From an uncultured bacterium (GTDB taxonomy: Bacteria > Edwardsbacteria > AC1 > EtOH8): 64,000 nucleotides of DNA. The stretch's first letter is position 1; each line of letters starts with the position of its first letter. Below the pieces are notes generated by a model that searched no databases, had not been told where the DNA came from, and worked only from the letters and a program-made list of their open reading frames with translations. The DNA is taken from NCBI GenBank assembly GCA_937863685.1, contig CALMGM010000005.1, positions 496,001 to 560,000 on the forward strand, written 5' to 3'. The translations under genes were made by a program, and so were the position numbers. Positions 53,790-63,339 of the stretch are shown piece after piece.

Positions 53790-54428
53790 ATGGGCAAAAA
53801 AAGAGAGCAGCTCCGCCGGGACAAGGAGCAACGGATACTGGGCGCCGCCCAGCAGCTTTTCATATCCCGCGGCTACCGGAATATCACCTTCAGGGATATC
53901 GCCGCCCAGGCTGGCTTTACCAGACGTACGATCTATGCCTACTACCCCACCAAGGAGGAGTTGATCATGACCCTGCATCTGGAGGGTCTGCAGGAACGAC
54001 TGGTGGTGTTGGAGAAGGCCATGGCTTCGTCCAAGACCGGTCTGTCCAAGATCGACGCCTTCGGCCGGGCCTACTTCCGCCACTACCAGGCCCATCCGGA
54101 CCAGCTTCTGCTGCAGGTGATTTTGGACACCGAGAAGCTGGACCATGCCAAAATATCCCCCGGCCTGATGTCCCGTTTCCGGCAGGCCAACGACCTGGGG
54201 CATGAACAGCTGGAGGGGGCCCTGACCCTGGGCAAAAAGGACGGAACCATTTCGCCCGACATCAACGTCAAGCTGTATTTTGTCTACCTGGTCTTTACCC
54301 TGCGGGCCATAGCCAAACAGACCCTGTTTCCCGCCCTGCTGCCGGTCGAGCGCTTTGGCGAAAAATTCTATTACGATTACCTGAAACTGCTGCTGAAAGC
54401 CCTGGCCCCGGATGAATCTAAAATTTAA
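53790..54428 (+). CDS. TetR/AcrR family transcriptional regulator
   Basis: ILGAAQQLFISRGYRNITFRDIAAQAGFTRRTIYAYYPTKEELI; ATG at 53790 preceded by AAGGAGG. Confidence 0.93.
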   Translation: MGKKREQLRRDKEQRILGAAQQLFISRGYRNITFRDIAAQAGFTRRTIYAYYPTKEELIMTLHLEGLQERLVVLEKAMASSKTGLSKIDAFGRAYFRHYQAHPDQLLLQVILDTEKLDHAKISPGLMSRFRQANDLGHEQLEGALTLGKKDGTISPDINVKLYFVYLVFTLRAIAKQTLFPALLPVERFGEKFYYDYLKLLLKALAPDESKI

Positions 54429-54444
54429 TTCAAAGGAGGCAAAG

Positions 54445-56772
54445 ATGAAACGGTCAGCATTGATCATTCTTCTGACCACAGTATCATTTTGGAAGCCGGC
54501 CGTCGGCCAGCCGGCCTTTAAGGTTATGACCGCCGACACCAATGTCAACCACGCTGCGGCCATAGCAGTGGCCGACCTGAACCGGGATGGACTGCCCGAT
54601 CTGGTGGCCGCCTCCTGGGGCAACCCGCCCAGCAGCGCCGACTACCGGGGGGTTCGCTACAGCCTGGGCCAGGACAGCGCGGCCTCTTCCTGGACCTGTC
54701 GGCCGGTCGATTCCAGTTATCAGCCCATGGGAGTGGAGGCGGCAGATATCGACGGAGATAGCCTCTGTGATGTGGCGGCCTGCAGCTGGACATCAAATGA
54801 CCTGGCCTGGTGGGGTAACGACGGAGGGAATCCGATCGTATGGACCAAACATGCCATCGATTCCAATTTCACCAATGCCCATGAGATCCATGCCGCCGAT
54901 GTTGACGGGGATGGTGATTTGGACATCATTGCTGCAGCGGCCGGCGTCAATCAAGTGGCAGTTTGGTATAACGACGGTTCCCAGCCGCCGGTTTGGACCA
55001 AGCAGGTGATAGATTCCGCCTTCGGCGGGGCCCGTTCGGTGGTGGCGTCCGACTTTGACGGGGACGGCGACCTGGACCTGGCCGGTGCCGCCGTGCTCAT
55101 CGACCAGGCGGCCTGGTGGAGGAACGAGGGAGGATCGCCGGCCGTCTGGACCAAGTACGTGATCGATGATGCTTTTGACACCGCCCATCGCCTGAACTGG
55201 GTCGACCTGGATCAGGACGGGCGGATAGATCTGGTGGGCGCCGGATACTCCGGCTCCATAGCCTGGTGGCGCAACAGCGCCGGATCGCCCATTGACTGGG
55301 TCAAGCAGGTGGTAGCCCCGGAATATCCCGGGGGTATGGTGGCCCACGCCGCAGACATGGACGGCGACGGCGACATCGACATCATCGGGACCAACCAGGT
55401 CAATGATCTGGTCAGCGTCTGGACCAATGAAGGAGGCGCGCCCCCGGCCTGGACGGAATGCCGGTGGAGCTTTCCCGGACCCTGGCCCATACTGCCCTAC
55501 GACCTGGACCACGACGGGGCCCCGGACATCGTCACCGGCGGATATTACGAAAGCGCATGGTTTCGTAACCTTTCCCGCTTGCGGCTGTCGGCTGATCTGG
55601 CTTTCTGCAGTCTGTCTCCCGGTGACAGCATAATTGTTCGTCTTTACCTTCCCTTGCGGTACGGGAAGACAGCAACCGTAGATATTTCTCCGGCCCTTGA
55701 CAATACGCCGACACTGGGTTTTATAAACCTGACCCTTGATCGAACTACCATCTCATCTCCCGATAGTTGCCAACTGACAATCAAGGCTTCCCCGGATGCC
55801 TCGCCGGGTAAATACGGGATCTCGATAATCTCAAGCGATGGCATTGACACCTTGGAAGCAGAAGGAATGATCGAGGTCGAGATCATCGGACAGGGACAGG
55901 CAGTCTGCATAGGCGCCGACCGGAAAATGATGGATCTGGTCCGATCTGTGTGGGGTGCTACCGACAGCCTGTGGAACGTCCCATCCACCCTGGGCAGTAA
56001 TTACCAAGCGGTGATAATAGAGAGCGGAGCCGGACCGGCCGATACTGCCAAGTTGCGAAGCTTCATCGGAAACGGCGGGCGGATTCTGCTGACCGCCAAC
56101 ACTCCTTACGATCTGTGCGCCGGCACCGGGTTGTCCGCCGTCAGCGGCTGGCTGGGCGCCTCCACTTTTGCTTTTTATACCGGAGCCGGGATATCAATCA
56201 TATCCAATTATAATGAGCCGTTTGGTTTCAGCGGCATTTCCTCTGGCGACACTTTGGGAATAGCGGTTTCGGGATGCGGCCGGCTGACTGGCCTCACGGC
56301 CAATGCCACTTCTATAGCCCATCTGGGCTCGGTCGGCAGCGCTATTGCCGGGGCTTACTGCCATTACGGCAGCGGGCACAGTTTCTATTACACCGGGGGA
56401 GCCGGAATCAGCCCGGCCAGCGATTCCCTGCTGGCCGCCTTCCTGAAGAACCCGGCCCTGGGGGTGGGAGCAGCATCCCAGGGAAGCACCCTGCCCGTGC
56501 CCCTGGCGCTGAGCGTGAGGCCCAACCCCATGACCCGTTCCTGTCGAATTGACTTTAGCCTGCCGGTCTCCGGCCCGGCCGATCTTTCGGTGTACGATAT
56601 TGCCGGCAGGAAAGTTTTCTCCATTTTGCACCGGCCGATGGTCCGGGGCCCCCAGACGGCATATTGGAACGGCCGGTCGGACGGGGGGATGAGATGCGCC
56701 TCGGGGGTTTACTTTATGCGGTGCACCACGCCGGCCGGTGTAGTCACTCAAAAAGTGCTGCTGCTAAAATAG
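54445..56772 (+). CDS. Secreted FG-GAP/VCBS repeat protein with C-terminal T9SS/FlgD-like domain
   Basis: Signal peptide MKRSALIILLTTVSFWKPAVG; repeated DVDGDGDLDIIAAA; C-terminal SVRPNPMTRSCRIDFSL..VYDIAGRKVF..YWNGRSDGG. Confidence 0.88.
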   Translation: MKRSALIILLTTVSFWKPAVGQPAFKVMTADTNVNHAAAIAVADLNRDGLPDLVAASWGNPPSSADYRGVRYSLGQDSAASSWTCRPVDSSYQPMGVEAADIDGDSLCDVAACSWTSNDLAWWGNDGGNPIVWTKHAIDSNFTNAHEIHAADVDGDGDLDIIAAAAGVNQVAVWYNDGSQPPVWTKQVIDSAFGGARSVVASDFDGDGDLDLAGAAVLIDQAAWWRNEGGSPAVWTKYVIDDAFDTAHRLNWVDLDQDGRIDLVGAGYSGSIAWWRNSAGSPIDWVKQVVAPEYPGGMVAHAADMDGDGDIDIIGTNQVNDLVSVWTNEGGAPPAWTECRWSFPGPWPILPYDLDHDGAPDIVTGGYYESAWFRNLSRLRLSADLAFCSLSPGDSIIVRLYLPLRYGKTATVDISPALDNTPTLGFINLTLDRTTISSPDSCQLTIKASPDASPGKYGISIISSDGIDTLEAEGMIEVEIIGQGQAVCIGADRKMMDLVRSVWGATDSLWNVPSTLGSNYQAVIIESGAGPADTAKLRSFIGNGGRILLTANTPYDLCAGTGLSAVSGWLGASTFAFYTGAGISIISNYNEPFGFSGISSGDTLGIAVSGCGRLTGLTANATSIAHLGSVGSAIAGAYCHYGSGHSFYYTGGAGISPASDSLLAAFLKNPALGVGAASQGSTLPVPLALSVRPNPMTRSCRIDFSLPVSGPADLSVYDIAGRKVFSILHRPMVRGPQTAYWNGRSDGGMRCASGVYFMRCTTPAGVVTQKVLLLK

Positions 56773-56884: not shown

Positions 56885-57157
56885 TCAATTCGCCTCCAGG
56901 GACATCCTGGCCGGCTGGTCCTGGTGGCACTCCCGGCAAACAACCTCACAGTTGGCGGCGATGTCGATGATACCGTTGGCCAGTTGCAACCGGTGGCGGG
57001 CAAGCCAGCCCTCCGGATCATGCAGCATGCCGTGCTTGTCCCAGTGCAGACCGCGGCTGCATGGCACTTTGCGTCCATCAACGACCTTGGTAGATTCACA
57101 CTTTCCTTCGGCCCTCTCCCAGGCCTTTTTCAGAGTCTCCTCGGAAAAAAACATCAT
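56885..57157 (-). CDS. Small HNH-like zinc-binding protein
   Basis: LKKAWERAEGKCESTKVV..VPCSRGLHWDKHG..WLARHRLQLANGIIDIAANCEVVCRECHQ; start overlaps the upstream stop. Confidence 0.65.
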   Translation of the reverse strand: MMFFSEETLKKAWERAEGKCESTKVVDGRKVPCSRGLHWDKHGMLHDPEGWLARHRLQLANGIIDIAANCEVVCRECHQDQPARMSLEAN

Positions 57158-57783
57158 TTGACCTCCTCGTTTAAGTTCCCGTCGCCGCCGGCCCGTGGAT
57201 AGAAGCAGTACTTGCGGCGCTGGTGTATCTTCTTGTAGGGACAATCCCGGGAATCACAGCAGGCAAATTCAAATCCCCGGGCAAATAGATCGGTCTGAAC
57301 GGCCGGGAACCGATGAGCCAGCCCGCAGACCGGCGGCGGCTTTTTGCCGAAACCATCGGGGCGTTCCAGGGCCTGGGTCAATCTTTGGTGCAGCTCCGCC
57401 AGAGCGAACGGCTTTTTCATGAATTGGGCCTCCCCGGGGATCTCTCCCGGGCCGGGCTGACTGCCGGAAACTATCAGAGTAATCAGCTCCGGCTTGATCC
57501 CGATCAATTTCCGGTGCAATTCGATGCCGCTGCCGTCCGGCAGGACCAGGTCGGTGAGCAACAGCCGGATCGCTTGCTGGTTCTCTCCAAAAAGCTGTTC
57601 GGCCCGATTGAAGCTGTCGGCGGTCAGAACGGCATAACCATTGTTCTGGAGAAGAAACGCCTCGATCTCCCGCATGGCTTTCTCGTCCTCCACCAGCAGA
57701 ATGGTTTTATCCGCCTCCTGATCGCGCGATTCTGATGATCCGACCGGTACCGGGTTTAAGCCAGCTTTAAAAGCCCCGTCCAT
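57154..57783 (-). CDS. Response-regulator receiver protein with Cys-rich C-terminal tail
   Basis: TILLVEDEKAMREIEAFLLQNNGYAV; LLLTDLVLPDGSGIEL; FMKKPFALAEL; tail CGLAHRF..CCDSRDCPYKKIHQRRKYCFYP. Confidence 0.85.
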   Translation of the reverse strand: MDGAFKAGLNPVPVGSSESRDQEADKTILLVEDEKAMREIEAFLLQNNGYAVLTADSFNRAEQLFGENQQAIRLLLTDLVLPDGSGIELHRKLIGIKPELITLIVSGSQPGPGEIPGEAQFMKKPFALAELHQRLTQALERPDGFGKKPPPVCGLAHRFPAVQTDLFARGFEFACCDSRDCPYKKIHQRRKYCFYPRAGGDGNLNEEVK

Positions 57784-57955
57784 CCATCCTTTCGGCCATC
57801 ACCATTGAGTTCTGGTACAGGATCATCCTGCGAGGCTGCTCGGCCCGCCTCAGGGCGCTGATCACGATCTTGTCCCGGTCGTGGGCCAGCACCTTTCCAT
57901 AATATTCCCTGCCGTTGCTAAGCAGGAAATGGTATATGTGGATTCTATCGTACAT
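57767..57955 (-). CDS. 62-aa small protein, possibly Sm/Hfq-like fold
   Basis: MYDRIHIYHFLLSNGREYYGKVLAHDRDKIVISALRRAEQPRRMILYQNSMVMAERMDGRGF; start trimmed from 58030; overlaps the receiver gene. Confidence 0.5.
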   Translation of the reverse strand: MYDRIHIYHFLLSNGREYYGKVLAHDRDKIVISALRRAEQPRRMILYQNSMVMAERMDGRGF

Positions 57956-58035
57956 ATTTATTCCTAAAGCTTGATTTACCGCCGGGCCGGCAATCCGGCC
58001 GGACCGGCAGTAAATTGATTGGCATTTCACCTTTG

Positions 58036-58176
58036 TTAAAATTCGTCCGGAGGAGGCGGCGGCACAGGATAGATCACGGTGGTAGTGGGAAGCGGATCAT
58101 CGGCGAAGCTGAGGGTGACTCCGGCCAGGGAAGCCAGCATAACTGCCAGCAGTAAAGAGTAGATCAGTTTTTTCAT
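58036..58176 (-). CDS. 46-aa secreted Pro-rich peptide (not in ORF track)
   Basis: MKKLIYSLLLAVMLASLAGVTLSFADDPLPTTTVIYPVPPPPPDEF*; SD GGAG upstream; clear signal peptide. Confidence 0.72.
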   Translation of the reverse strand: MKKLIYSLLLAVMLASLAGVTLSFADDPLPTTTVIYPVPPPPPDEF

Positions 58177-58226
58177 TTTGTCTCCGATTTTATTGATTGA
58201 TTGTTTATGCATCTGTCTTTTATTGT

Positions 58227-58242
58227 TTCATTAATCGTGCCA
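58227..58242 (-). promoter_or_regulatory. Possible sigma54-type promoter
   Basis: Minus strand TGGCACG-ATTA-ATGAA; -24 box perfect, -12 box degenerate (GA for GC). Confidence 0.4.
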
Positions 58243-58320
58243 AATTTTTATATATGTTTTAACCCCTTGATTTTACAACCTTTAACACTTTATGATAGCT
58301 CAGATGGGAGAAAAAAACAA

Positions 58321-58353
58321 AAGGCGGTTGAGACATTATGTCTCAGCCGCCTT
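58321..58353 (-). terminator. Rho-independent terminator after kinase/sigma54 regulator gene
   Basis: AAGGCGGTTGAGACA-TTA-TGTCTCAGCCGCCTT; minus strand continues TTGTTTTTTT. Confidence 0.85.
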
Positions 58354-58439
58354 AGTTTAATGGCTAAAATATATTATAACTTCTTCATTTTAAATGGGTA
58401 ACAAAATATGTGTCCTTGGGTCTCGCATTTTTCACAATG

Positions 58440-61400
58440 TCACACCTTAATGTTGTGTTTTTCCATCAACCGGTACAGGTGACGACGGGATATCCCTAAT
58501 GCTTTGGCCGCTTGAGAGATATTTCCATTAAAATTTTTAATGCCCTCGAGTATATCCTGACGACGATTGCTCTGATATTTATTCTGGGTTTCGCTCAAAC
58601 CCGGAGATATCTCCAGTTCCTTGGCTGTTATGGCCTTTTTATTTGTCAGCAGCACCGCCCTTTGAACCGTATTTTCCAACTCACGGACGTTACCTGGCCA
58701 GGCATGGCCGATCATCTGCTGCTTAGCCTCGGAATCAAAACGGAGCCCGATCTTGCCGAATTTGCGGCAATACTTTTCTTTGAAATATTCGGCCAACAAC
58801 AGTATGTCTCCGCTCCTTTCCCGCAGCGGGGGAATGGGAATGGTCATCACCTTAAGCCGATAGTACAGGTCCTCCCTAAAACGGCCTTCGTTGATCTCAA
58901 TCTCCAGATCTTTATTGGTGGCGCAGATCACCCGGACGTCCACCGTCCGGTTCTCGGACTCTCCCACCCTTCTGATCTCTCCGCTCTCCAGCACCCTTAG
59001 CAGGCGAGACTGAACCGCCTGGCTGGCGCTGGCGATCTCGTCCAAGAATACCGTGCCGCCATCGGCCGATTCGAACAACCCGGGCTTGTCCTTGCCGGCA
59101 CCGGTGAAAGCCCCCCTAACGTAACCGAACAGCTCCGATTCCAAAAGGGTCTCCGGAAGCGAACCGCAATCCAGGGCCAGGAACTTGCGCTTCCCTCGGG
59201 ACGACAATCTGTGGACCGCCAAAGCCGCCAGTTCCTTGCCGGACCCGGATTCGCCGTCCAGCATGACGGTGATGTCCGCCTGGGCAACGGTTCTGATCCG
59301 CTGGATCATCTGCCTGACCGGAGGGGATTGGCCGATTATCAAGTTGAAAATGTCATTCTCTTGCAATTCGGCCGTCGCTTGATCGAAGCGGAGCCGGCTG
59401 ATCAGTTGGCCGCTTTCCAGGACCGCCCCGATGATGCCGGCCAGGGCCAGCAGGAACTCCCGCTGCCTGTCCCCGAACAGGCCGCTGGTGACCCGGGAGT
59501 CCAGATAGACGGCCCCGGCCGCCCCTTCCCGAAAATGCAAGGGGACGCACAGCAGCGACCGGATGATGTTTCGCTGCACGCTAAGCCGCGAGCGGAAGGC
59601 CTCATCCAAAGAGGCATCATTGGATATAATCAGCCGGCCCTGGCCGGCGGCGGCCCGGACGGCGGTGGCCGAAAATTCCAGGGCGTCCTTTCTGGTCTGG
59701 TCGTCCAGGTCTATCTGAGCGGCCATGGTTATCTGCAGGTCTTTGTCCAGCAGGAAAAGAGCCCCGCGTTCCGCGCCGGTCATCTCCAGCGCCAGCTTGA
59801 GCGATTCGCGAGCCAGATCCTGCTGGCCCACTTCGGTGGCCAGCAGGCCGGCCAGCCGATAGATGCCGTTCAGCAGGTTCGGTGAAAATGTTTCCCGGTC
59901 CGGACGGTCGAAGCAGAGGCGGTCCGCCCGAAGCATGATCTCCCTGGCCCTGCCCAAATGATCGGGCGTTCCCATTTCGATGAACAGAGATTCGGCCCTG
60001 ACCAGCCAAGGCAGGACTTTTTCCAGCAACTCCGGGCGACCCTGTTCGACCGCTTCCTCGGCCGCCCGCAGCCAGCAGTTGGCGGCATTGAATCTATCGC
60101 CTTTCTCCATAAGCTCCTGTCCGGCCTCGATCGCTGTTTTCAACCCCTGTTTTCCGGTGTTATCATCGACCATTTGCAGAATACCCTCCACGATTTTTAT
60201 TTGACCGGTTAATATGCTGTTCTTCTGGGGATTTTCTTTCGCCCGGGACAGGTATTCCCGGGCCAGGCCGTTATTGCCGTTCCGGTGCTCGGCAAAGGCC
60301 AGGTCGGCAAATATCTCGGGATCAGGGGCAAAGCCCAGCCGGTGATAATTCTCCAGCGACTCTTGAAAGGTGGCAATGGCCCGGGGCCAGTCACCCTGTT
60401 CCAGCTCCAGGCCGGCCCTGACCCTTAGCACTGCCGCCGGACCGCAAACGCTGTCCGGCCGTTGGCTGATCTCCAGCGCTTTGGCGATATGGATTGCCGC
60501 CAGCTCCTTTTGGCCCAACAGGCTTTCGACGATGCTCAGGTTGGACAAACTGGCTGTCAGGCCCCGATCCCGTTCCCCTTTACCGGCTCCGGCCAAAAGC
60601 GCCAGAAGGAACCTGTGGGCCGCCGAATAGCCGCCTTTATTCATGGCGATGTTTGCCAGACCGGTCAGGGCTTCTGTTAAATACTGCTGGCTGCCGACAC
60701 CCATCATGTGATACATGCTCTGCCGATATGCCTCCTCGGCCCTGTCCCAATCCCGGAGGTTAAAATATACCGACCCTAAGCTGTAGTGTATCTTTCCCAG
60801 GGCCTGATCTGGGATCGCTGAATCGGCATGGGAGATGGCCTCTTCCAGTCTGTCCCTGGCCTTCTCCGGCAAACCCAGTATCCCCAGGGTGTTCCCGTAA
60901 AAGGCCAGTATCCGGGATTTTTCATAGCCGGCGGTATCCTGGTCCCACATCTGCATTACGGTCTCCAGGGGTTCTGCGACCAGATCCCAGTGGTTTTTCT
61001 GATAATGATATATGCCCAGCAGTTCGGCGGCTGCCATCATGGCCCTGGGGCTGCCCAGTTCCTTTCCTCGCCTCAGGCATTCCCGTAGGATCCGGTCCGA
61101 ATCGTCGGAGCCATCCCTGATCCCCCGGAGATACCCTTGATAACTTTGACCGAAAAGGGCTATTTCCGGATCCAGCTTACCGATCCTCCCGGCCAGAAGT
61201 TTTAGCTTGTTCTCCGCCTCCTCATAAAGCTTGCCGTTGGAAATGATATAGAACAGCCGCTTCCAGTATTTCCAGTCCCGGCCCCGGGAGTTTTCCAGTT
61301 TTTGCCAAGACTCCAGAGCCTCGCTCCATCGCCCCATCCGGCAGCACAGGTCGGCGATCTGCTCTGCCAGTTCCCGGTAAAAGACCCCATCGGTTGTTTC

Positions 61401-63167
61401 CGCTGCACAAAGCTCCCGGGCCAGTAGCAGTGTGCGGTGGATGTCGCCCCGCTGCCGGGTCTTGGCATACAGTCGGGTGGTCAAGCGGATCCGCTGTTCG
61501 CCATCCGGCAGCCAGGTCCGGTATGCCTCCCGGCAGAAAAAGTCGCTGGTGGGGTCCGGCTGGTGCTCGATCTGTCCGATCAGTTCCCGGCGTTGGCCCT
61601 GCCCCCAGCCGGTCATCACCAGCCTTAAACATTGCTCGTCGCTTATGGCGTATCTATCGCCCCGTTTTACGACCCTGTGCTTTAACCTGTCCGGCAGGGA
61701 CTGCCCGGCAGGAACCTGACCCAGGGCTGCAGCCCCAGCCAAGGCTCTCTCGCCGGCCGACAGGCCCTGCCACCAATCGGACAATCTCCTGGCACCGTTT
61801 TCCGGGCCTTCCCGGTTGGCCAGAATCTCCGGCCATTTGACCTGCCGGATCTTCTCCTTTTTTGAGATCCATCCGCTCCGCACGTAAAATTGGATCAGCT
61901 CCTCGGCCCGCCCAACATCATCGCCGGTTTCCTCGCAGATCCGGCAGGCCAGCAGACCCAGGTCATAGATGCTGATATCCTCAAAACAGCCTTTTAAAAT
62001 ACGGCGGTAAAGATCTTCCGTGGCCGGGTCAATTGAAATCACCCGCATCGTGGACGGGACCGAATGATCGTCGGGGCCATCTCCGGCATAGATTATGCTC
62101 CAGCGCCCCGTCCCGGACATCTTTTCCAGCCGGGGATCGGAAGGTTTTATATGGTCGATCAGAAGAAGGGCGCCTTCGGTGAAATCGAAATCCGGGATAT
62201 CGTTTTTCGGAAGGCTTTTCAGGTCCAGATAATAGCTGTCCCGGCCCCTGAGTCGGCTGATAAAATCGATCTCCTTCAACAAGCCGGTCCGGCCGCTTCC
62301 CTGTCCGCCGTCCAGCTTCACCAGGCGCGGTTTGGCCGGGTCATCATGGCGCAAGGCTTCCCGCAAAGCCGCCGGGGGAGATGCGTAATCGAACCTCACC
62401 GGTTCCTGATCCGGGCAAAACATCCCTGCCTGGCAGCCCGCCTCCAGCAGAGACCCGGCAGAATCGTACCGCTCGATGGGATCGTAACGGAGCATTTTTA
62501 TCAACAGGTCGGCCACCGGCCCGGAAAAGCGCTCCGTTATGTGGGCCGTCAGGGGCTCGTTCCGGTTGAGCCTGATCTCCGGGCGGGGCAGCTCTCCGGT
62601 CAGCATCTGGAACAGCAGCAGACCCAGGCTGTAGATGTCGGAGGCCGGAATGTTGCCGCCGCGCCCCGACAGCGATTCGGGCGGGGCATAGGCCGGAGTG
62701 CCGCAGCCCGGGCCGGCCCCGGCCTGTCCCAGGTCCAGCAATTTGACCGAATGGCCGGAGACGATTATGTTATCGGGTTTTATATCGCCGTGGACCAGGC
62801 CCCGCTTATGAAGATACGACAGGATCCGGCAAAGCTTTTCCAGAACGGGCATGGCCTCGGCCGGGGGCATCGCCCCCGGGGCCAGCATCTGGAAAAGGGA
62901 TCGGCCGGGGCAGTATTCCAGGGATAGATACCCTGTTTCCCTTTCCGGCGAGAGCGTAAGATCGTAAACCTCCGGAAGCCCGGGATGCCGGAAACGGTGC
63001 AGCCGGATGTACTCGTTCTTCAACAAATGACAAAATGGCCCGGAGGCCATTTTCAATGCCACATCCCTGCCGGCCGCCAGGTCCCTGGCCAGGAATACCT
63101 GGCCGAAACCGCCCTGCCCCAGGGACCGGACCATCTTATAGCGCCGGGGGAATATGTAGTTTTCCAT
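58440..63167 (-). CDS. Ser/Thr protein kinase - ATPase-like - TPR - GAF - sigma54-interacting AAA+ - Fis-type HTH regulator
   Basis: GQGGFGQVFLARD, HGDIKPDNIIV, GTPAYAPPES; P-loop-like GGQGSGRTGLL; TPR array; GAF; GESGSGKELAA, GAFTGAGKDKPG, WPGNVRELEN; Fis HTH at C-terminus. Confidence 0.92.
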   Translation of the reverse strand: MENYIFPRRYKMVRSLGQGGFGQVFLARDLAAGRDVALKMASGPFCHLLKNEYIRLHRFRHPGLPEVYDLTLSPERETGYLSLEYCPGRSLFQMLAPGAMPPAEAMPVLEKLCRILSYLHKRGLVHGDIKPDNIIVSGHSVKLLDLGQAGAGPGCGTPAYAPPESLSGRGGNIPASDIYSLGLLLFQMLTGELPRPEIRLNRNEPLTAHITERFSGPVADLLIKMLRYDPIERYDSAGSLLEAGCQAGMFCPDQEPVRFDYASPPAALREALRHDDPAKPRLVKLDGGQGSGRTGLLKEIDFISRLRGRDSYYLDLKSLPKNDIPDFDFTEGALLLIDHIKPSDPRLEKMSGTGRWSIIYAGDGPDDHSVPSTMRVISIDPATEDLYRRILKGCFEDISIYDLGLLACRICEETGDDVGRAEELIQFYVRSGWISKKEKIRQVKWPEILANREGPENGARRLSDWWQGLSAGERALAGAAALGQVPAGQSLPDRLKHRVVKRGDRYAISDEQCLRLVMTGWGQGQRRELIGQIEHQPDPTSDFFCREAYRTWLPDGEQRIRLTTRLYAKTRQRGDIHRTLLLARELCAAETTDGVFYRELAEQIADLCCRMGRWSEALESWQKLENSRGRDWKYWKRLFYIISNGKLYEEAENKLKLLAGRIGKLDPEIALFGQSYQGYLRGIRDGSDDSDRILRECLRRGKELGSPRAMMAAAELLGIYHYQKNHWDLVAEPLETVMQMWDQDTAGYEKSRILAFYGNTLGILGLPEKARDRLEEAISHADSAIPDQALGKIHYSLGSVYFNLRDWDRAEEAYRQSMYHMMGVGSQQYLTEALTGLANIAMNKGGYSAAHRFLLALLAGAGKGERDRGLTASLSNLSIVESLLGQKELAAIHIAKALEISQRPDSVCGPAAVLRVRAGLELEQGDWPRAIATFQESLENYHRLGFAPDPEIFADLAFAEHRNGNNGLAREYLSRAKENPQKNSILTGQIKIVEGILQMVDDNTGKQGLKTAIEAGQELMEKGDRFNAANCWLRAAEEAVEQGRPELLEKVLPWLVRAESLFIEMGTPDHLGRAREIMLRADRLCFDRPDRETFSPNLLNGIYRLAGLLATEVGQQDLARESLKLALEMTGAERGALFLLDKDLQITMAAQIDLDDQTRKDALEFSATAVRAAAGQGRLIISNDASLDEAFRSRLSVQRNIIRSLLCVPLHFREGAAGAVYLDSRVTSGLFGDRQREFLLALAGIIGAVLESGQLISRLRFDQATAELQENDIFNLIIGQSPPVRQMIQRIRTVAQADITVMLDGESGSGKELAALAVHRLSSRGKRKFLALDCGSLPETLLESELFGYVRGAFTGAGKDKPGLFESADGGTVFLDEIASASQAVQSRLLRVLESGEIRRVGESENRTVDVRVICATNKDLEIEINEGRFREDLYYRLKVMTIPIPPLRERSGDILLLAEYFKEKYCRKFGKIGLRFDSEAKQQMIGHAWPGNVRELENTVQRAVLLTNKKAITAKELEISPGLSETQNKYQSNRRQDILEGIKNFNGNISQAAKALGISRRHLYRLMEKHNIKV

Positions 63168-63339
63168 TTCGCCTCTTCCCGTAATCATTCCATCACTGTG
63201 CATCCGCCCAGACCGGGCAATGGTATTGCCTGTCTATTTTGAGGGACCCCGGGGCTGCCGTTCGGCCTAAAATCACGCCCGATAATATTACATGAAAATA
63301 GTCTTTTGCGCAACAAGAAAAACCAGCTTTTTAATGAAA

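What the first reader, a model, noticed from the sequence alone, without database searches (positions are those of the whole stretch)
58036..58176. Overlooked 46-aa secreted proline-rich peptide gene
ORF below the track cutoff. Translation MKKLIYSLLLAVMLASLAGVTLSFADDPLPTTTVIYPVPPPPPDEF has a textbook signal peptide ending LSFA, a short acidic/Pro-rich mature part (about 21 aa) and an SD-like GGAG upstream. It is the first gene of the operon next to the kinase-sigma54 regulator.
Basis: seen in the sequence. Interest (0 to 1): 0.72.

Follow-up and report, generated by a model that had tools for sequence, protein, structure and literature searches.

The report
Conserved secreted proline-rich peptide operon
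A 46-residue, easily overlooked gene in an uncultured bacterium (Candidatus Edwardsbacteria) is real and conserved: it makes a short proline-rich peptide that is very probably exported and switched on by the giant kinase/sigma-54 regulator beside it, in a layout that resembles peptide-signalling systems known from Gram-positive bacteria.

Summary
A matching peptide gene sits directly behind the orthologous kinase-TPR-GAF-sigma54 regulator in 9 of the 10 genomes held for Ca. Edwardsbacteria, under purifying selection (pooled pN/pS 0.24; mature part 0.20). All nine copies have a sigma54-type -24/-12 element 49-70 nt before the start codon and GACA-N3/4-TGTC palindromes further upstream. In relatives the same element pair precedes other genes, mostly for secreted proteins (LCAT-like hydrolase, RHS protein, small secreted proteins). 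In one genus the Sec signal is replaced by a double-glycine leader while the Pro-rich tail stays, pointing to the exported tail as the product. The next gene is an LSm/Hfq-fold protein. Best reading: the exported product, possibly the autoinducer, of a sigma54 regulon, arranged like PlcR-PapR but with a ~1575-aa kinase-TPR-sigma54 regulator. Gene and sigma54-type control are well supported by sequence comparison and export is likely; the signalling role is inference (about 0.4). A secreted effector or bacteriocin-like peptide is the main rival (about 0.35).

The parts
58036..58176 (-). peptide gene, 46 aa; likely signal part residues 1-25 (58102-58176), mature part residues 26-46 (58039-58101)
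   Evidence: conserved frame in nine genomes, pN/pS 0.24
58182..58185 (-). Shine-Dalgarno-like GGAG, 5 nt before the ATG
   Evidence: sequence; GGAG also upstream of the start in G001, G002, G006, G008
58229..58242 (-). sigma54-type promoter element TGGCACGATTAATG (-24/-12)
   Evidence: similar element at -49 to -70 from the start in all nine loci; chance 0.1-1% per spacer; sigma54 gene present
58329..58345 (.). palindrome TGAGACATAATGTCTCA, proposed activator site; also the core of the hairpin that follows the regulator gene
   Evidence: only exact copy in the own genome; hairpin fold z -6.3
58433..58444 (.). weak second half-palindrome TGTGACATTGTG overlapping the regulator stop codon, at the place of the distal site of other genomes
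   Evidence: sequence comparison; weak in this genome
58310..58353 (-). terminator-like hairpin plus T run after the regulator gene (not called by the simple terminator scan, whose loop rule excludes it)
58440..63203 (-). regulator: Ser/Thr kinase - TPR - GAF - sigma54 AAA+ (GAFTGA) - Fis HTH, 1575-1587 aa
   Evidence: Pfam matches; orthologs in the phylum
57974..58015 (-). intercistronic GC hairpin between the peptide gene and gene 2
   Evidence: fold z -4.6; hairpins in six of eight loci, weakest in G004
57767..57955 (-). gene 2: 62-aa LSm/Hfq-fold protein
   Evidence: conserved in 8 of 10 genomes; AlphaFold pLDDT 85 and Hfq top matches in PDB
57154..57783 (-). gene 3: receiver-domain protein with Cys-rich C-terminal part
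   Evidence: Response_reg E 6.4e-12
56885..57157 (-). gene 4: 90-aa Cys-rich, weakly HNH-like protein
   Evidence: phrog_740 E 0.006; homologs in the same operons of G006, G009, G007, G004

Best explanation
The gene makes a precursor that is exported (by Sec here; by a double-glycine leader in a sister genus) and trimmed to a short acidic, Pro-rich peptide. It is the first product of an operon that the adjacent kinase-TPR-GAF-sigma54 regulator turns on: its Fis-type HTH binds the GACAT palindromes and it drives sigma54 polymerase at the TGGCAC element, co-activating in relatives a set of secreted proteins. The most likely purpose of the peptide is an autoinducing signal read by the TPR part of the regulator, in the manner of PlcR-PapR. 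Well supported by comparison: gene, selection, promoter element, palindromes, operon. Inferred: export and cleavage, binding of the palindromes by this regulator. Speculative: return of the peptide and binding to the TPRs.
For: Conserved peptide and position in nine genomes; purifying selection also on the mature part; sigma54-type element and palindromes in all nine loci, sigma54 gene in all nine genomes; palindrome plus promoter also ahead of LCAT-like, RHS and small secreted proteins in relatives; leader swapped for a double-glycine type with the tail kept in genomes that have a C39-ABC transporter; regulator carries TPRs; SBP_bac_5 peptide-binding proteins present; published PlcR-PapR layout of adjacent small propeptide, TPR regulator and a mostly exported regulon.
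Against: No peptide-regulator contact is shown. The regulator is about three times longer than RRNPP receptors and also has kinase and GAF inputs. Import of so Pro-rich a peptide is untested. The window's own genome has no second exact copy of the palindrome, so its regulon may be this operon alone. SignalP was not run and the cleavage site is unclear in G006, G008 and G009.
Confidence: 0.4

Rival explanations
1. The peptide is a secreted effector, bacteriocin-like or surface-active, made under the same sigma54 control as the lipase and RHS protein, and does not feed back on the regulator.
For: Other genes with the same promoter signature encode exported proteins; the G004 form weakly matches bacteriocin double-glycine leader models, below cut-off; PlcR also controls small antibacterial peptides.
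Against: No immunity, modification or dedicated transporter gene in the operon; peptide is acidic, very short and strongly conserved in its tail.
Confidence: 0.35
2. The peptide is a structural or chaperone-like component of the envelope or periplasm, for example a Pro-rich ligand of an exported protein.
For: sigma54 regulation has been linked to the cell exterior in general (PMC3162934); Sec-type leader in seven of nine copies.
Against: The double-glycine version would leave by a different machine; mature part only about 16-21 aa; no partner gene identified.
Confidence: 0.13
3. The short ORF is a regulatory leader: ribosome pausing at the Pro run controls the downstream genes, and the product itself has no role.
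For: Pro run near the C-terminus and a hairpin before gene 2 in six of eight loci.
Against: Two different export leaders are conserved; 31-46 aa is too short for a Sec-monitoring arrest peptide to expose its signal at the pause; hairpin absent in G006 and G009; mature part kept by selection on amino acids.
Confidence: 0.07

Closest known systems
PlcR-PapR (RRNPP/RRNPPA peptide quorum sensing, Bacillus cereus group)
   Same: Small Sec-type propeptide gene adjacent to a TPR-containing transcription activator; palindromic boxes; targets largely exported proteins including phospholipases
   Different: Receptor-candidate is ~1575 aa with kinase, GAF and sigma54 AAA+ domains and acts through sigma54, not sigmaA; different phylum; double-glycine variant; peptide binding not shown
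Double-glycine leader peptides / class II bacteriocins (TIGR01847, PF10439)
   Same: The G004 and G007 forms have an LS/MMxIKGG-type leader, and a C39-ABC transporter exists in both genomes
   Different: Below model cut-offs; the window's own peptide has no such leader; no immunity gene
sigma54 enhancer-binding proteins of the NifA/NorR/LuxO kind
   Same: GAF, sigma54 AAA+ domain with GAFTGA, Fis HTH
   Different: Kinase and TPR front end; scores far below every equivalog cut-off in NCBIfam
Hfq / LSm proteins (operon gene 2)
   Same: Predicted five-stranded Sm fold, Hfq structures as top matches
   Different: About 10% sequence identity, no Pfam match above cut-off

Membership tests
RRNPP quorum-sensing system (five-criteria signature of PMC10075063) | propeptide of 10-100 aa | tested here: met
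   46 aa
RRNPP quorum-sensing system (five-criteria signature of PMC10075063) | propeptide secreted by Sec (SignalP) | tested here: inconclusive
   Sec-type signal by inspection only in seven copies; SignalP not available; two copies have a double-glycine leader instead
RRNPP quorum-sensing system (five-criteria signature of PMC10075063) | receptor of 250-500 aa | tested here: not met
   1575-1587 aa
RRNPP quorum-sensing system (five-criteria signature of PMC10075063) | receptor has TPRs | tested here: met
   TPR_12 E 2.5e-15, residues about 768-993
RRNPP quorum-sensing system (five-criteria signature of PMC10075063) | receptor and propeptide genes directly adjacent | tested here: met
   adjacent in nine genomes; spacing 263 bp here, beyond the -50 to 191 bp of reference systems but within the detector's default of 400
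RRNPP quorum-sensing system (five-criteria signature of PMC10075063) | mature peptide binds the TPRs and changes output | not testable with these tools
   needs binding and reporter experiments
Double-glycine leader bacteriocin / peptide | leader ending in GG with model score over cut-off | tested here: not met
   window peptide has no GG leader; G004 form 13.0 bits against cut-off 15.7 (TIGR01847) and 12.1 against 27.1 (PF10439)
Double-glycine leader bacteriocin / peptide | C39-ABC exporter in the genome | tested here: met
   in G004 and G007, elsewhere in the genome; also G000 and G003; none in G001, G002, G008, G009
sigma54-dependent enhancer-binding protein (the regulator) | sigma54 AAA+ domain with GAFTGA, and DNA-binding HTH | tested here: met
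   PF00158 E 1.9e-65, HTH_8 E 4.8e-7; GAFTGA in the sequence
LSm/Hfq family (operon gene 2) | Sm fold | tested here: met
   predicted model only: pLDDT 85; Hfq E 2.6e-3, TM about 0.7
LSm/Hfq family (operon gene 2) | RNA binding as a ring | not testable with these tools
   needs experiment

The most novel reading that the evidence does not exclude
A peptide quorum-sensing circuit outside Firmicutes in which a Ser/Thr kinase-TPR-GAF-sigma54 activator is the receptor of its own exported Pro-rich peptide, with an export leader that differs between genera (Sec or double-glycine) while the signal part is kept.
Probability: 0.35. Interest if true: 0.85.

Novelty: new variant of a known kind. Interest (0 to 1): 0.62.

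Why it matters
If the signalling reading is right, TPR-based peptide communication would not be confined to Firmicutes, and sigma54 activators with kinase-TPR front ends would gain a candidate ligand. Even as a plain secreted effector it is a clear case of an easily missed short gene with strong comparative support, and its palindrome-plus-promoter signature gives a way to read a regulon of exported proteins in genomes that cannot be grown.

Tried and rejected
(1) Weaker tblastn matches of the peptide outside the phylum (G032, G054, G010 and others, E 4e-4 to 10): no kinase-sigma54 regulator was seen beside those looked at; treated as low-complexity chance. (2) A distant regulator in G145 outside the phylum: no Pro-rich peptide found around it. 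(3) The second regulator of G007 (C117): the contig ends soon after it and no peptide was found. (4) Rfam: nothing at gathering threshold in 57600-58600. (5) PADLOC: only the kinase and sigma54 domains of the regulator match; none of the small operon proteins does. (6) Foldseek for gene 2 also lists a domain of a diheme cytochrome c; Hfq preferred because most top hits are Hfq. (7) Literature searches for Edwardsbacteria peptides or a double-glycine/sigma54/kinase system gave nothing relevant. (8) One palindrome-plus-promoter match in G002 lies inside coding DNA and was set aside as chance. (9) The simple terminator scan did not call the hairpin after the regulator; folding did show it.

Full report
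Observation. The ORF is on the minus strand at 58176->58036 and reads MKKLIYSLLLAVMLASLAGVTLSFADDPLPTTTVIYPVPPPPPDEF. GGAG at 58182-58185 precedes the ATG. An upstream in-frame ATG (58212) exists, but the start conserved in relatives is the one at 58176.

Organism. The genome is one of ten held for its phylum. Named records whose contig lengths equal those of three sister genomes (G003:C13, G004:C70, G007:C78) are labelled Candidatus Edwardsbacteria or UBP2.

It is a real gene. tblastn finds it in the three other species held for the genus at 78, 58 and 58% identity, directly behind the orthologous regulator and ahead of the same 62-aa gene. In a second genus the ORF behind the regulator is of the type MKKASLFLLAAFLLISSIAIPAYSAVINKPIIVLGDDPVPLPPPPR (G006, G008, G009). 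In a third it is MKVLDKAMLSRIKGG-DTIDPPLPPPPPPIIP (G004) and MKVLDKALMMKIKGG-DEIDPPVPPTPPPVRP (G007). Nine of ten genomes have it; G005 shows only a fragment of the regulator. Four independent pairs give pN/pS 0.24 overall, 0.20 for the mature part and 0.34 for the leader. The Pro run uses mixed codons, so it is not a simple slippage repeat.

Export. Seven copies have a Sec-type signal by inspection; SignalP was not available and the cleavage site is less clear in G006, G008 and G009. Two copies have a double-glycine leader. Both of those genomes encode a C39-ABC transporter. G001, G002, G008 and G009 (95-100% complete) show none, so there the peptide should not depend on one. G000 and G003 have the transporter, with its own set of double-glycine peptides beside it. 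The leader differs in type while the tail is kept, so the tail is most likely the working product. That both forms descend from one gene is inferred from position, promoter and tail, not from leader similarity.

Control. In all nine loci a TGGCA[C/T]-N6-TG element lies 49-70 nt before the start codon; the chance of one in a shuffled spacer was 0.1 to 1%. sigma54 is encoded in all nine genomes searched. Palindromes with GACA-N3/4-TGTC cores lie upstream, the proximal one mostly at -169 to -191, with a second about 80 bp further in several genomes (in G007 only the distal one fits the exact core). The proximal palindrome also forms the hairpin after the regulator gene (four genomes, z -5.6 to -9.4). 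Searches with the palindrome or palindrome plus -24 element find the peptide promoter in seven genomes and a few more places. The window's own genome has only this one. In G002 the extra sites precede an LCAT-domain hydrolase, whose homologs lie downstream of the peptide operon in G001 and G003, and a protein with a secretion-tail domain followed by an RHS protein. In G003 and G007 they precede other, apparently secreted proteins, and in G006 a run of small secreted proteins. One further G002 match is in coding DNA and is taken as chance. Binding by this regulator is inferred from the co-occurrence.

Operon. Gene 2 (57955-57767) is predicted as a five-stranded Sm fold (pLDDT 85) with Hfq structures as top matches (E 2.6e-3, TM about 0.7). 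Gene 3 is a receiver-domain protein, gene 4 a small Cys-rich, weakly HNH-like protein. A hairpin separates peptide and gene 2 in six of eight loci, which would fit a higher yield of the first gene.

Mechanism. Supported by comparison: a conserved short gene under purifying selection, its own sigma54-type promoter, palindromes shared with genes for exported proteins. Inferred: export and trimming, and activation by the adjacent regulator, which has the domains for it (kinase, TPR, GAF, sigma54 AAA+ with GAFTGA, Fis HTH). Speculative: that the peptide returns and binds the TPR region. The model is PlcR-PapR, where the PapR heptapeptide is imported by Opp and binds the TPR domain of PlcR (PMC6568020), and 40 of 45 PlcR-controlled proteins are exported, with phospholipases and PapR among them (PMC2464732). 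Of the five-point RRNPP signature (PMC10075063), peptide size, TPRs and adjacency are met, receptor length is not, and Sec export was judged only by eye. So it is not filed as an RRNPP system; it may work like one. SBP_bac_5 proteins exist in all nine genomes searched, which permits import but proves nothing. A secreted effector is nearly as likely.

Range. Among 239 sampled genomes the full regulator was found only in Edwardsbacteria, with a distant relative in G145 lacking the peptide.

Verdict. Interest 0.62: a solid, conserved, exported-peptide operon with an unusual regulator and an unusual change of export leader; the signalling role is open and directly testable.

Noticed in passing
L120:4762-5229 (G000:C5, outside the window) and L121:4846-5266 (G003): Three tandem short genes for double-glycine leader peptides (MKELNRDELLKVKGG-EDIVEPDETD...YGSYY) beside a C39-ABC transporter and an accessory protein: a second exported-peptide system in the same organism.
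   Followed up: partly
window 57767-57955 (-): 62-aa operon protein with a predicted LSm/Hfq fold and almost no sequence similarity to Hfq.
   Followed up: yes
window 58310-58353: The proposed activator site is also the stem of the hairpin after the regulator gene, in several genomes: one palindrome with two possible jobs.
   Followed up: partly
L127:1620-1733 (G002:C4): Between a palindrome/sigma54 promoter and the LCAT-like gene lies a short ORF ending NLKADETQSPVVPTGIVPDV, perhaps a decayed or divergent peptide gene.
   Followed up: no
L153:3016-4908 (G006:C13): Four related small secreted proteins (109-115 aa) in a row behind a palindrome pair and a TGGCAC-N5-TTGC promoter; function unknown.
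   Followed up: partly
window 54412-56772 (+): 786-aa FG-GAP repeat protein with a weak secretion-tail (Por_Secre_tail) match, convergent to the operon.
   Followed up: no
G000:C1:32250-37591 (L067): A second kinase-TPR protein (1240 aa) followed by a separate GAF-sigma54 activator (542 aa): a split version of the same architecture; no Pro-rich peptide was seen beside it.
   Followed up: partly
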